Below are positions 30,821 to 33,942 of a stretch of DNA of 64,000 nucleotides, one piece after another. Both the position numbers and the translations under genes were made by a program. The notes under the pieces are model-generated. The model did not search any database. It saw only the letters and a list, made by a program, of their open reading frames with translations, and was not told the DNA's origin. This DNA is from Elusimicrobium sp. An273 (GTDB lineage Bacteria > Elusimicrobiota > Elusimicrobia > Elusimicrobiales > Elusimicrobiaceae): contig NZ_NFJD01000003.1 in assembly GCF_002159705.1 (NCBI RefSeq), positions 62,001 to 126,000 of the forward strand, in the 5' to 3' direction. The stretch's first letter is position 1; the number at the start of each line of letters is the position of its first letter.

Positions 30821-31165
30821 ATGCTTATCAAACTCATCCGCACCTTCAGTTCCGCCCACCGCCTGCCGCATTACGACGGCCCCTGCCACCAATTGCACGG
30901 GCATACGTGGAAAGCCGTGTTTGTTATAGAAGGCGCCGTACGCGAGGACGGAATGGTATGCGATTTTAAGGTCATCAAAAAACTGTTGGATGACAATCTG
31001 CCCGACCACCAATTTTTAAACGACTGGGTGGAAAACCCCACCGCCGAAAATCTGGCCCAATATCTGTTTGCAAAAATAGGGGCCGAATTAAAGAAACAAA
31101 ATTTAACCTTAAAAACACTGGAAATCTGGGAGAGCGACAATGCCGCAGCCGTCGTGGAAGGTTAA
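30821..31165 (+). CDS. queD: 6-carboxytetrahydropterin synthase
   Basis: Converts dihydroneopterin triphosphate to 6-carboxytetrahydropterin in queuosine/preQ0 synthesis. 114 residues, the short bacterial form. Zinc ligands are in FSSAHRLP and LHGHTW, and the catalytic cysteine is present in the CxxxHGH motif (CHQLHGH). The next gene, queE, overlaps its end by 26 bp. The intact cysteine separates it from the paralogue at 33095. Confidence 0.92.
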   Translation: MLIKLIRTFSSAHRLPHYDGPCHQLHGHTWKAVFVIEGAVREDGMVCDFKVIKKLLDDNLPDHQFLNDWVENPTAENLAQYLFAKIGAELKKQNLTLKTLEIWESDNAAAVVEG

Positions 31166-31733
31166 CGAAATTTTTTATTCTATTCAAGGCGAAGGCAAGC
31201 ACACCGGCATGCCGGCGGTGTTTATCCGGCTGGCGGGGTGCTCCATGAACTGCCCGTTCTGCGATACGAAATACGCCGCACGGGACGGCCAAACCCTGCA
31301 GGCCGAGGCCATTTTAAAAGCCCTTGCCTCCTGGCCGGCCAAGGCCGTCATCATTACCGGCGGCGAACCCAGCGAGCAGGACTTGCCCGCCCTGATCGGC
31401 GTGTTAAAAGATGCCGGCTACGAAGTGCACCTGGAAACCAACGGCGCCAACGATACGGACGTAAGCCGGGCGGATTTTGTCTGCGTATCGCCCAAGCGCT
31501 ACGTCAGCCCGCAAATGCTAAAGAAAGCCCACGTCATTAAATTGGTCGTCGGGCAGGAAACCGATTTGGAAGACTTGCAAAAATACTATGCGTACGAAAA
31601 CGCCCACACGCAAATTTATCTGCAGCCCGAAAGCAACAAACAGGAGAACATTGACCTATGCGTAAAACTGCTAAAAAATCATCCCTCCGCACGGCTAAGC
31701 CTGCAAACGCACAAGCTGGCAAACATCCGCTGA
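31140..31733 (+). CDS. queE: 7-carboxy-7-deazaguanine synthase (radical SAM)
   Basis: Radical SAM enzyme that turns 6-carboxytetrahydropterin into 7-carboxy-7-deazaguanine. 197 residues. Cluster motif CSMNCPFC (CxxxCxxC) near residue 34, the conserved start FYSIQGEGKHTG, and the glycine-rich SAM region IITGGEPSEQD. It starts inside queD (GGAGAG site) and its 3' end is overlapped by folE for 76 bp. QueC, needed for preQ0, is not in the window. Confidence 0.93.
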   Translation: MPQPSWKVNEIFYSIQGEGKHTGMPAVFIRLAGCSMNCPFCDTKYAARDGQTLQAEAILKALASWPAKAVIITGGEPSEQDLPALIGVLKDAGYEVHLETNGANDTDVSRADFVCVSPKRYVSPQMLKKAHVIKLVVGQETDLEDLQKYYAYENAHTQIYLQPESNKQENIDLCVKLLKNHPSARLSLQTHKLANIR

Positions 31734-32278
31734 GCGAAGAAAAAATTTTAAACAATCTGCGCGAAATTTTGGCCTATATCGGCGACGATCCGACCCGCGA
31801 AGGCCTCTTGGAAACGCCGGCGCGCATCGTACGCAGCTGGAAAAAACTTTTCGGCGGCTACCAGATGAAGCCGCAGGACGTATTAAAAACGTTTACGGAA
31901 GGCTCCTGCGAAGAAATGGTGGTGTTAAAAGACATTGAATTTTATTCCACCTGCGAACATCACCTGCAGCCGTTCTTCGGCACCATCAGCATCGGATATC
32001 TGCCCAAAGGGCGAGTGCTGGGTATTTCCAAGCTCGCACGCCTGGTGGAAGTGTTTGCCCGCCGCCTGCAAATTCAGGAAAAACTGGTGGCCCAAATTGC
32101 AGACAGCCTGATGGACACCCTGCAGCCCCACGGCGTGATGGTAGTGTGCAAAGCCAAACATATGTGCATCAGCTCGCGCGGCATTGAAAAGCATAACGCC
32201 GTTATGGTCACGAGCGCCATCCGCGGCGCGTTTAAAAAAATGGAAGTGCGCAACGAATTTTTGGAAATGATCAAATAA
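31658..32278 (+). CDS. folE: GTP cyclohydrolase I
   Basis: Converts GTP to 7,8-dihydroneopterin triphosphate, the shared entry to folate and queuosine. 206 residues, type IA. Zinc ligands are seen in FYSTCEHHLQPF and KHMCISSRG; the fold also shows DDPTREGLLETPARIV and GISKLARLVEVFARRLQIQE. The start at 31658 overlaps queE by 76 bp but is supported by an AGGAGA site nine bases upstream and no nearer Met. The basic first 20 residues are probably disordered. Confidence 0.94.
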   Translation: MRKTAKKSSLRTAKPANAQAGKHPLSEEKILNNLREILAYIGDDPTREGLLETPARIVRSWKKLFGGYQMKPQDVLKTFTEGSCEEMVVLKDIEFYSTCEHHLQPFFGTISIGYLPKGRVLGISKLARLVEVFARRLQIQEKLVAQIADSLMDTLQPHGVMVVCKAKHMCISSRGIEKHNAVMVTSAIRGAFKKMEVRNEFLEMIK

Positions 32279-32300: not shown

Positions 32301-33098
32301 ATGGCCAACCCGCTTTTAATGGGCATTGTAAACGCTACGCCCGATTCTTTTTACGACGGAGACCCGCAAAACAATTTGGCTTCTTTGCTGGCCAAATGCA
32401 AAGACTACGTCCAATCCGGCGCCGATATTCTGGACATCGGCGGCGAATCCACCCGCCCCAACGCCACCCCCGTCAGCGCCGAAGAAGAAATTTCCCGCGT
32501 GCTGCCGCTGATTCGGGCCGTGCGCCAGAAATGGCCGCAGTTGCCCGTCTCGCTGGACACCGTCAAAATCCCCGTTGCGCAGGAAGGACTAAAAGCCGGA
32601 GTTTCTATTATAAACGACGTAAGCGGCACGCCAGATAAGGAAATGTTTCGCCTGGTGCGGGATTTTAAGGCGCAAATTGTCGTGATGCACACGCGCGGCA
32701 CGCCGCAAACCATGCAAGGCTTAACCGAATATGCCCACTTGCTGGAAGAAATAAAAGATTTTCTGGCGGGCAAAATTCAAGAAGCGCTTTCCTGCGGTCT
32801 TGCCAAAGAAAACGTGATTATAGATGTAGGGTTCGGCTTTGCCAAAACGCGCGAACAAAATTACGAACTGTTGAAACACCTTTCGTTTTTTAAAGATTTA
32901 GGCGTGCGGATGCTGGTGGGAGTATCGCGCAAAACTTTTTTAAGCCAAAAGCGCGAACTGCCGCCCAAACGCAAAGCGCAAACGCTGGCCGCCCAGTTGG
33001 TCGCCCTGCAGGGCGGGGCGGACATTCTGCGCGTGCACGACGTAAAAGATACCCGCAAAATTATGAATTTTTACCAAGAGTTGGAGGCCGCCCCATGA
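32301..33098 (+). CDS. folP: Dihydropteroate synthase
   Basis: Joins hydroxymethyldihydropterin pyrophosphate with p-aminobenzoate to dihydropteroate; sulfonamide target. 265 residues, TIM barrel. Motifs: GIVNATPDSFYDG, DILDIGGESTRP, SLDTVKIPVAQ, IINDVSG, and the C-terminal VGVSRKTFL and LRVHDVKDT. All expected substrate residues seem present. GGGAG precedes the ATG; the next gene overlaps its stop codon by four bases. Confidence 0.94.
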   Translation: MANPLLMGIVNATPDSFYDGDPQNNLASLLAKCKDYVQSGADILDIGGESTRPNATPVSAEEEISRVLPLIRAVRQKWPQLPVSLDTVKIPVAQEGLKAGVSIINDVSGTPDKEMFRLVRDFKAQIVVMHTRGTPQTMQGLTEYAHLLEEIKDFLAGKIQEALSCGLAKENVIIDVGFGFAKTREQNYELLKHLSFFKDLGVRMLVGVSRKTFLSQKRELPPKRKAQTLAAQLVALQGGADILRVHDVKDTRKIMNFYQELEAAP

Positions 33099-33445
33099 GC
33101 AAGGTTTATTTAACCCAATGCGGCAGCTTTACCGCCCGCCACGGGCACGGCGGTACGCTGGCCGAAGAAGTGCATACCCATACTTTTCACTACGAAGTAA
33201 CTTTCTTCGGGCCGACGAATGCCGAAGGGTACCTGATTGATTTTCGCCAACTGGCGGACACGTTTAAAAAAGAACTGGAATCCCGCCTGGAAGGGAGCGA
33301 TTTGGGAACGTTTCTGCCCCAGCCCACGACCGAGGCGCTGTGCGTGTGGATGTACAAACGCCTCAAAGAACGGCTGCCGCATTTGTACAGCGTAAAAGTG
33401 GCCGAAGAACCCGACCGCTGGATTGAATACCGCGGAGAAGAATAA
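33095..33445 (+). CDS. PTPS-family paralogue, probable FolB replacement (PTPS-III-like)
   Basis: 6-pyruvoyltetrahydropterin synthase fold, 116 residues. The metal histidines are kept (FTARHGHGG and VHTHTFHYEV), but the motif that reads CHQLHGH in QueD here reads AEEVHTH: the catalytic Cys is Ala and a Glu stands next to it. Family knowledge: PTPS paralogues in which glutamate replaces or accompanies the cysteine (PTPS-III) make 6-hydroxymethyldihydropterin from dihydroneopterin triphosphate and bypass FolB. Its position between folP and folK, with no folB in the operon, fits that role. GGAGG site; four-base overlap with folP, one-base overlap with folK. Confidence 0.8.
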   Translation: MSKVYLTQCGSFTARHGHGGTLAEEVHTHTFHYEVTFFGPTNAEGYLIDFRQLADTFKKELESRLEGSDLGTFLPQPTTEALCVWMYKRLKERLPHLYSVKVAEEPDRWIEYRGEE

Positions 33446-33942
33446 TGCCCAAGGCCGTGCTTGCTTTGGGAAGCAACATTCCCCCCGCCAAAGAAAATAT
33501 AGACCGCGCCATAGAGGCCCTCAGCGCCTTGGGTACGGTCAAGGAAGTGGCGCCGTATATCGTTTCCAAGCCGGAAGGCTTTGCCGAACAACCCGATTTT
33601 ATCAATACGGTGCTGATTTTAAGCACCCCCTATCAGCCCCTGCCGCTTCTTAAAAAATTAAAAGCGCTGGAAACCCGGCTGGGCCGCACGCCTACTTTTA
33701 AAAACGGGCCGCGCGTGATTGATTTGGACATCCTGTTTTACGACGACCAAGTTTTGTTTGAAGACGATGACGAGTACCCTCTTTTCATTCCGCACCCGCG
33801 CCTGCAGGAGCGGGAGTTTGTCTTAAAGCCGCTGTCGTATATTCTGTCCGACTTTGTCCACCCCAAACTGGGCAAACCCGTCTACCGCCTGTACCGGGAA
33901 CTGATGAAGAAAAAAGGAAAACCCGACTGTCACATTTTGTAA
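33445..33942 (+). CDS. folK: HPPK, 6-hydroxymethyldihydropterin pyrophosphokinase
   Basis: Transfers pyrophosphate from ATP to 6-hydroxymethyldihydropterin. 165 residues, the usual length. Motifs: LALGSNIPPAKENI, FINTVLIL, LGRTPTFKNGPRVIDLDIL with the two catalytic Asp, and FIPHPRLQEREFVLKPL. Last gene of the pterin operon; start codon shares one base with the preceding stop. No clear terminator follows before the ompA promoter. Confidence 0.95.
   Translation: MPKAVLALGSNIPPAKENIDRAIEALSALGTVKEVAPYIVSKPEGFAEQPDFINTVLILSTPYQPLPLLKKLKALETRLGRTPTFKNGPRVIDLDILFYDDQVLFEDDDEYPLFIPHPRLQEREFVLKPLSYILSDFVHPKLGKPVYRLYRELMKKKGKPDCHIL

What the first reader, a model, noticed from the sequence alone, without database searches (positions are those of the whole stretch)
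33095..33445. PTPS paralogue that has lost the catalytic Cys and probably replaces FolB
In a folE-folP-X-folK operon with no folB, X is a second PTPS-fold protein in which QueD's CHQLHGH is AEEVHTH: Cys gone, Glu beside it, metal histidines kept. Known PTPS-III proteins use an active-site Glu to make 6-hydroxymethyldihydropterin directly. The Gly-to-Thr change inside the HxH motif is unusual, so this may be a distinct branch.
Basis: partly seen in the sequence, partly recalled or inferred. Interest (0 to 1): 0.62.

Follow-up and report, generated by a model that had tools for sequence, protein, structure and literature searches.

The report
Divergent PTPS-III-like substitute for FolB
A gut bacterium that lacks the standard folate-pathway enzyme FolB carries a reshaped cousin of a tRNA-modification enzyme that very probably does FolB's job; the trick itself is known, but this version has discarded more of the usual active site than expected.

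Summary
Window 33095-33445 (+) encodes a 116-aa PTPS-fold protein (X) in a queD-queE-folE-folP-X-folK operon; no FolB was found in the genome. QueD's CHQLHGH is AEEVHTH in X, and Glu24 sits exactly at the published PTPS-III position (ExxHGH). X occurs in three genera of Elusimicrobiaceae. In 82 distinct sequences Glu24 and the three metal histidines never vary and Cys never occurs. X lies directly before folK in 52 of 52 loci examined and is fused to FolK in six genomes. In the phylum the -3 Glu of PTPS proteins behaves like a switch: 0 of 53 FolB+ genomes have it, 31 of 31 FolB-/FolK+ genomes of the sister family do (exceptions are told; the test corrected for relatedness has too few pairs to be significant). 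So X most likely makes 6-hydroxymethyl-dihydropterin for FolK, by a known principle (PTPS-III). Unusual is how much was dropped: no X keeps the catalytic Asp-His pair, the middle residue of HxH is free (12 residue types, Gly in 2 of 82), and an extra histidine (His18) is invariant. The Thr itself is not special. Verdict: a new variant of a known kind. No activity has been shown.

The parts
30821..31165 (+). queD (PTPS-I type; motif CHQLHGH; no Glu at the -3 position)
   Evidence: PF01242 3.1e-30; QueD model 81 bits, below its cut-off of 89.25
31140..31733 (+). queE
   Evidence: Pfam Radical_SAM 41.6 bits, above cut-off; QueE-type NCBIfam models are the best hits (up to 136 bits) but below their cut-offs
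31658..32278 (+). folE (GTP cyclohydrolase I, makes the shared precursor)
   Evidence: TIGR00063 229.3 bits, above cut-off
32301..33098 (+). folP (dihydropteroate synthase)
   Evidence: TIGR01496 299.7 bits, above cut-off
33095..33445 (+). X: PTPS-fold protein, PTPS-III-like, proposed FolB substitute
   Evidence: PF01242 8.6e-18; model pLDDT 94.1; VIA Z 18.0 to 2oba
33140..33142 (+). His16, first metal ligand by homology
   Evidence: His in 82 of 82 distinct X sequences
33146..33148 (+). His18, invariant in X and absent from this place in QueD/hybrid proteins
   Evidence: His in 82 of 82 distinct X; Leu 176, Ile 1, Thr 1 in 178 QueD/hybrid sequences; same strand as His16 in the model (strand 3-18)
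33161..33163 (+). Ala23, at the place of the catalytic Cys of QueD/PTPS-I
   Evidence: A/N/S/D/G and never C in 82 distinct X; C in 174 of 180 QueD/hybrid sequences
33164..33166 (+). Glu24, the PTPS-III catalytic Glu position (ExxH)
   Evidence: 82 of 82 distinct X; motif ExxHGH in PMC5041015
33173..33181 (+). His27-Thr28-His29, metal ligands by homology with a free middle residue
   Evidence: both His 82 of 82; middle residue 12 types
33290..33295 (+). Glu66-Gly67, at the place of the catalytic Asp-His pair
   Evidence: His at that place in 4 of 82 X against 175 of 180 QueD/hybrids; both Asp and His in 0 of 82 X
33445..33942 (+). folK (HPPK), presumed user of X's product
   Evidence: TIGR01498 115.7 bits, above cut-off

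Best explanation
X is a zinc-dependent T-fold pterin enzyme that takes the place of FolB. It removes two carbons of the side chain of the FolE product (7,8-dihydroneopterin triphosphate, or a less phosphorylated form) to give 6-hydroxymethyl-7,8-dihydropterin, which the next gene's product, FolK, pyrophosphorylates. Glu24 is inferred to act as the catalytic base, as Glu38 is proposed to do in the malarial enzyme. The Cys-Asp-His triad used for the QueD/PTPS reactions has been lost, so X should be a dedicated folate enzyme, and the separate QueD, which has Cys but no Glu at -3, serves queuosine. Shown here: gene, predicted fold, motif, conservation, linkage, fusions, no FolB found. Inferred: zinc, reaction, substrate form, the role of each residue, and that invariant His18 may take over a proton-transfer role.
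For: No FolB match in own genome, in 61 relatives or in the own family within the 340-genome phylum search; no archaeal DHNA PF04038 in 90 family genomes. Glu24 matches the PTPS-III motif ExxHGH (PMC5041015 section 5) and P. falciparum FRETLH, where the Glu38 mutants to Cys, Gln and Leu gave no 6-hydroxymethyl-dihydropterin (PMC2229834 passages). Glu24 and the three His are invariant in 82 distinct X. folK lies directly downstream in 52 of 52 loci. X-FolK single ORFs occur in six genomes. In the single-contig genome G102 X sits at folK while QueD is about 147 kb away. The -3 Glu occurs in 0 of 53 FolB+ genomes and in 31 of 31 FolB-/FolK+ genomes of the sister family. Single-PTPS FolK+ family members have CEALHGH or CERLHGH, and a FolK- one has CRFLHGH. 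QueD ORFs on the same loci as X have no Glu at -3 (0 of 107, redundant). dN/dS is 0.04-0.21 in 36 pairs of nine near orthologues, many with dS above 1.
Against: No activity was measured. The strict PTPS-III motif needs HGH, and X has HTH. Loss of the Asp-His pair is not known to be compatible with activity: Pyrococcus PH0634 (ExxHGH, no Cys) keeps it. In the sister family 4 of 15 FolK- genomes still have the Glu. Other genomes that do not fit: G283 has the Glu but no FolK match; G206 (70% complete) has FolK, no FolB match, and the one PTPS gene read there has no Glu; G112 has X at a contig edge and no FolK match, and G013 has FolK but no PTPS match. With relatedness controlled the association is weak: 6 independent pairs on starred branches, mostly 3-4 concordant (2 in a few pairings), 0 discordant, the rest without difference, median p 0.125. 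The genome has no PF00186 dihydrofolate reductase match, so the later pathway is not standard.
Confidence: 0.85

Rival explanations
1. X uses dephosphorylated or monophosphorylated dihydroneopterin, like a true aldolase or the Pyrococcus dihydroneopterin-monophosphate aldolase, and not the triphosphate. (This rival differs from the best explanation in the substrate only, so the two odds overlap.)
For: The best solved-sequence match is Pyrococcus PH0634 (3.6e-20), and X pairs with it in the tree (SH-aLRT 92, long branches). PMC5041015 Table 3 gives 'dihydroneopterin monophosphate aldolase' as the TrEMBL annotation of the P. furiosus PTPS-III protein PF1278 (passage); that PH0634 is its orthologue is recalled.
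Against: Malarial PTPS uses the triphosphate (PMC2229834). None of the six operon proteins is a phosphatase or FolQ by its Pfam matches.
Confidence: 0.3
2. X is a non-catalytic relic or structural partner, and an unrelated protein (for example the transaldolase-like FolB2 proposed in PMC1971073) makes the hydroxymethyl-dihydropterin.
For: The Cys, the Asp-His pair and the HGH Gly are all lost. PMC1971073 proposes transaldolase-like genes near folK as FolB substitutes (passage).
Against: Metal His and Glu24 are invariant in 82 of 82; low dN/dS; none of the six operon proteins is transaldolase-like, though the genome as a whole was not searched for it; X is fused to FolK in six genomes.
Confidence: 0.07
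3. X is a second QueD-type or PTPS-type enzyme (queuosine or biopterin) and only by chance lies in a folate operon.
For: It belongs to the same Pfam family as QueD and has a weak hit to the QueD model (36.1 bits against 89.25).
Against: No Cys in 82 of 82; beside folK in 52 of 52 loci, also in G102 where queD is elsewhere.
Confidence: 0.03
4. On origin, not function: X arose by duplication of a bifunctional CExxHGH protein inside the family, rather than by gain of a PTPS-III gene from elsewhere.
For: Bifunctional-type motifs CE..HGH occur in family members G105 and G124 and in 12 of 16 other FolB-less phylum members outside the sister family whose PTPS I read (L238-L240, L243-L246, L252-L256; the other four, L248-L251, lack Cys). 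Two-copy genomes split the residues, with C in QueD and E in X.
Against: The tree puts X apart from the family's QueD and next to Pyrococcus PH0634 (SH-aLRT 92), with long branches and few columns.
Confidence: 0.4

Closest known systems
PTPS-III (COG0720 subfamily; bacterial and archaeal folate enzyme that replaces FolB)
   Same: PTPS fold, three metal His, Glu three residues before the first motif His, found in genomes without FolB
   Different: HxH in place of HGH; catalytic Asp-His pair gone; extra invariant His18; X-FolK fusions
Plasmodium falciparum PTPS (1Y13; Glu38, FRETLHGH)
   Same: Cys replaced, Glu at the same motif place; fold match Z 12.6
   Different: malarial protein is longer and keeps Gly in HGH (primer text in PMC2229834, translated by me); it makes two products (PMC2229834)
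Pyrococcus horikoshii PH0634 (2dj6, 2dtt)
   Same: best profile match (3.6e-20); no Cys, ExxHGH
   Different: keeps LDH at the catalytic pair and Gly in HGH; no His two residues after the first metal His
PTPS-I/III bifunctional CExxHGH proteins (here in the sister family and other FolB-less Elusimicrobiota)
   Same: Glu at the same position
   Different: keep Cys, Asp-His and HGH; presumed to serve both queuosine and folate
FolB (dihydroneopterin aldolase)
   Same: same pathway step; T-fold, Z 8.3-10.3
   Different: another sequence family (no PF02152 match); no zinc motif (recalled)

Membership tests
PTPS / COG0720 (PF01242) | match above the Pfam gathering score | tested here: met
   64.9 bits against 22.4
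PTPS / COG0720 (PF01242) | three metal-binding histidines | tested here: met
   His16, His27, His29 in 82 of 82 distinct X; metal itself not tested
PTPS / COG0720 (PF01242) | T-fold of the PTPS type | tested here: met
   predicted model pLDDT 94.1; Z 18.0, rmsd 1.3 over 113 residues to 2oba_A
PTPS-III | Glu at -3 of the motif (Exx before HGH) | tested here: met
   Glu24, 82 of 82; motif from PMC5041015
PTPS-III | full motif ExxHGH | tested here: not met
   window X is ExxHTH; Gly in 2 of 82 distinct X
PTPS-III | genome has FolK but no FolB | tested here: met
PTPS-III | makes 6-hydroxymethyl-dihydropterin / rescues a folB mutant | not testable with these tools
   needs biochemistry or genetics
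PTPS-I / QueD | CxxxHGH | tested here: not met
   Ala23 in place of Cys; never C in 82 X
PTPS-II (biopterin) | CxxxxxHGH | tested here: not met
   residue -6 of the motif is Thr21 in X, and HTH stands in place of HGH
PTPS-V / PTPS-VI | their signature motifs | not tested
   named in PMC5041015 without the motifs; papers I tried as likely sources are not held
FolB (PF02152) | match to the FolB profile | tested here: not met
   0 matches in the genome; the Pfam scan of X at E up to 1 gave PTPS alone

The most novel reading that the evidence does not exclude
X is a stripped-down, single-purpose lyase: the whole Cys-Asp-His triad of the PTPS family and the HGH glycine have been discarded, and catalysis rests on Glu24, the zinc and a newly fixed histidine (His18) that takes over proton transfer. 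In some species it is fused to FolK so that the product is handed on directly. It would show the minimum that the PTPS fold needs to cleave the pterin side chain, without the second product of the malarial enzyme.
Probability: 0.4. Interest if true: 0.6.

Novelty: new variant of a known kind. Interest (0 to 1): 0.46.

Why it matters
PTPS-III enzymes are a known answer to 'where is FolB?', but the published motif (ExxHGH) would miss this branch, so folate synthesis could be called incomplete in gut Elusimicrobiaceae. The branch separates the folate residue (Glu) from the queuosine residues (Cys, Asp-His) in nature and gives a clean test of which residues the carbon-cutting reaction needs. The phylum also offers a natural experiment: one residue of a small enzyme follows the presence or absence of FolB and FolK.

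Tried and rejected
A hidden FolB: no match (control rang in 10 of 14). An archaeal-type DHNA: no match in 90 family genomes (control rang in 3 archaea). Thr28 as a special signature: rejected, the position is free. Simple in-family duplication as the origin of X: not supported by the tree, left open. A relatedness-corrected test of the Glu switch: right direction but too few pairs. The position of His18 relative to the zinc could not be measured: model coordinates are not in the script box, and the active site lies between subunits (recalled).

Papers. Elusimicrobi with dihydroneopterin, and Elusimicrobi with pyruvoyl, gave 0 papers each; PTPS-III with HPPK gave 0; Elusimicrobium minutum with folate gave 4 papers, seen as a listing only, whose titles and abstract starts do not treat this step. 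Searches were capped listings (10 of 709 and 20 of 326), and no paper listed holds 'Elusimicrobi', so says nothing on these bacteria. Seen as passages: PMC5041015 (its section 5 in full), PMC2229834, PMC4674097, PMC3223725, PMC1971073. The main PTPS-III papers (Pribat 2009, and others that I looked up by recalled identifiers) are not held.

What the counts leave out. In one search one FolB+ genome (G203) and the second copy of G207 were not parsed and were read by eye (Tyr and Pro at -3). FolB+ genomes G162 and G216 have no PTPS match. Genomes G173-G176, with FolB matches below the cut-off, were not examined. In the sister family G125, G129 and G052 have no PTPS match; G126, G132 and G137 were left out; further FolK- genomes may be among the 37 that one search did not list. 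The 52 loci are one per fetched genome; G075, G101, G103, G112, G114, G120 and the genus members first found were not in that count.

Full report
Observation. The ORF at 33095-33445 (+) is real and encodes 116 residues. It belongs to the PTPS family (PF01242, 64.9 bits, cut-off 22.4) and sits in a tight same-strand run queD-queE-folE-folP-X-folK, with 4- and 1-base overlaps on either side of X. QueD has CHQLHGH, X has AEEVHTH. The metal histidines (16, 27, 29, by homology) are kept, the Cys is Ala23, and Glu24 is the residue three places before the first motif histidine.

Where the Glu falls. PMC5041015 (its section 5 read in full; other passages) gives the motifs: PTPS-I/QueD CxxxHGH, PTPS-II CxxxxxHGH, PTPS-III ExxHGH, and notes that CExxHGH hybrids exist and that some can serve both folate and queuosine. 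In P. falciparum PTPS the Glu of FRETLH (Glu38) was shown by mutants to be needed for the 6-hydroxymethyl-dihydropterin product (PMC2229834, passages). X's Glu24 is at exactly this place. The neighbouring Glu25 is variable in the branch (Glu in 15 of 82 distinct sequences).

The genome. The window's genome (1.5 Mb, listed as 97.76% complete) has no FolB match, and none of 61 relatives (own genome included) does. Over the phylum, 59 of 340 genomes have a FolB match, 55 above the cut-off, none in the window's family or its sister family. An archaeal-type DHNA (PF04038) has no match in 90 genomes of the family. Record titles of relatives name, among others, uncultured Elusimicrobium, Elusimicrobiaceae and Candidatus Avelusimicrobium, several from animal guts.

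The branch. A profile of X finds strong matches (E of 6.4e-29 or better) only in three genera of the window's family (g1, g12, g15). The best match in another family is 2.6e-14; those that I read are ordinary PTPS genes with HGH. Of 37 genomes of the genus, 34 have two PTPS genes, two have one (X, on short contigs or near a contig end) and one has none. Among 82 distinct X sequences (81 by the motif count) His16, Glu24, His27 and His29 are invariant; the Cys place is A/N/S/D/G; the middle of HxH is E, T, D, S, P, K, A, R, G, N, Q or L, with Gly in 2. The catalytic Asp-His pair, D in 177 and H in 175 of 180 distinct QueD/hybrid sequences, is E-G in the window's X; D stands in 15 and H in 4 of 82 X, and no X has both. 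His18 is invariant in 82 of 82 X, while 178 QueD/hybrid sequences have Leu (176), Ile or Thr there. By the model's strand 3-18 it should face the same side as His16; its role is inference. Selection is purifying: dN/dS 0.04-0.21 in 36 pairs of nine near orthologues, with dS above 1 in many.

Link to FolK. folK is directly downstream on the same strand in 52 of 52 X loci examined (47 separate, 5 fused). Six genomes in all carry one ORF with X and FolK (G004, G015, G019, G022, G032; G075); how many fusion events these are was not worked out. In the single-contig genome G102 (1,643,562 bases, which I recall as the size of Elusimicrobium minutum Pei191) X is next to folK at 839 kb, and QueD is at 692 kb. 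Two genomes do not fit simply: G112 has X at a contig edge without a FolK match (83% complete), and G013 has FolK without a PTPS match (85% complete).

A natural experiment. In the sister family f2, which has no FolB match, all 31 genomes with FolK have a PTPS with Glu at -3 (CENLHGH). Of 15 examined genomes without FolK but with PTPS, 4 have it (G051, G127, G130 and one of two copies in G128) and 11 do not. Of 55 genomes with FolB above the cut-off, 53 have PTPS and 0 have the Glu. In the window's family, single-PTPS genomes with FolK have CEALHGH (G124) and CERLHGH (G105); G104, without FolK, has CRFLHGH. Among 107 QueD ORFs that lie on the same fetched loci as an X (many loci are the same genomes twice), 0 have Glu at -3. 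Elsewhere in the phylum, 16 FolB-less genomes whose PTPS I read all have the Glu, 12 with and 4 without Cys, one of them (G283) without a FolK match; G206, with FolK and no FolB match, has a PTPS-II-like gene without it. Fisher tests give p about 1e-23 and 1e-7, but these ignore relatedness. With independent pairs on well-supported branches (96 sequences) there are 6 pairs: mostly 3-4 concordant (2 in a few pairings), 0 discordant, the rest equal, median p 0.125.

Fold. The model (pLDDT 94.1) matches PTPS and QueD structures best (Z 18.0 to 2oba, 17.5 to E. coli QueD, 16.8 to PH0634, 13.0-13.1 to P. vivax PTPS) and FolB-type aldolases more weakly (Z 8.3-10.3). By sequence profile the best PDB match is Pyrococcus PH0634 (3.6e-20), which has ExxHGH without Cys but keeps LDH.

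Origin. X is one clade (SH-aLRT 95) and groups with PH0634 (92), not with the family's QueD; there are few columns and long branches, and the tree is a quick one without bootstraps. Duplication of a hybrid followed by division of labour, or gain of a PTPS-III gene followed by loss of the Glu from QueD, are both open.

Conclusion. X works like PTPS-III, as far as sequence and context can tell, and is a PTPS-family member; by the strict published motif it is not a PTPS-III, because HGH is HTH. The most likely function is the FolB step. The principle is known (PMC3223725, passages, lists it as validated in 1 eukaryote and 8 prokaryotes), so the finding is a new variant: a folate-only branch without the triad, with a free HxH centre, an added invariant His, and fusion to FolK in some species. 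I saw no paper on this branch in the searches (Elusimicrobi with dihydroneopterin or pyruvoyl) gave 0 papers. The library lacks most subscription journals, including the main PTPS-III papers.

Noticed in passing
own genome (G000): No dihydrofolate reductase of the FolA family (PF00186) was found, although folE, folP and folK are present; the last reduction step must use another enzyme. Control rang in 9 of 14 genomes.
   Followed up: partly
L067:1492-3117; L068:1360-3084 (open frame): In the sister family FolK is the front part of a long ORF (482-848 aa in the rows listed). In the two that I read, the rear part looks by eye like a FolC/Mur-ligase-type protein: a FolK-FolC-like fusion.
   Followed up: no
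L248, L249, L250, L251: In other FolB-less families of the class the PTPS has DEPLHGH or TEPLHGH: Cys lost, Glu and HGH kept, and in L248, L249 and L251 the catalytic His is Tyr. This looks like a separate step towards a folate-only enzyme.
   Followed up: partly
L241 and L258 (G195), L262 (G207): FolB+ genomes with a second, PTPS-II-like gene (GKC[DN]NPNGHGHN) in a long ORF.
   Followed up: no
L226 (G111): G111 has a third, weak PTPS-family match (4.6e-12, 198-aa open frame) besides QueD and X.
   Followed up: no
window 31658-31733: The folE ORF as called overlaps the end of queE by 76 bases; the true folE start may lie further in.
   Followed up: no
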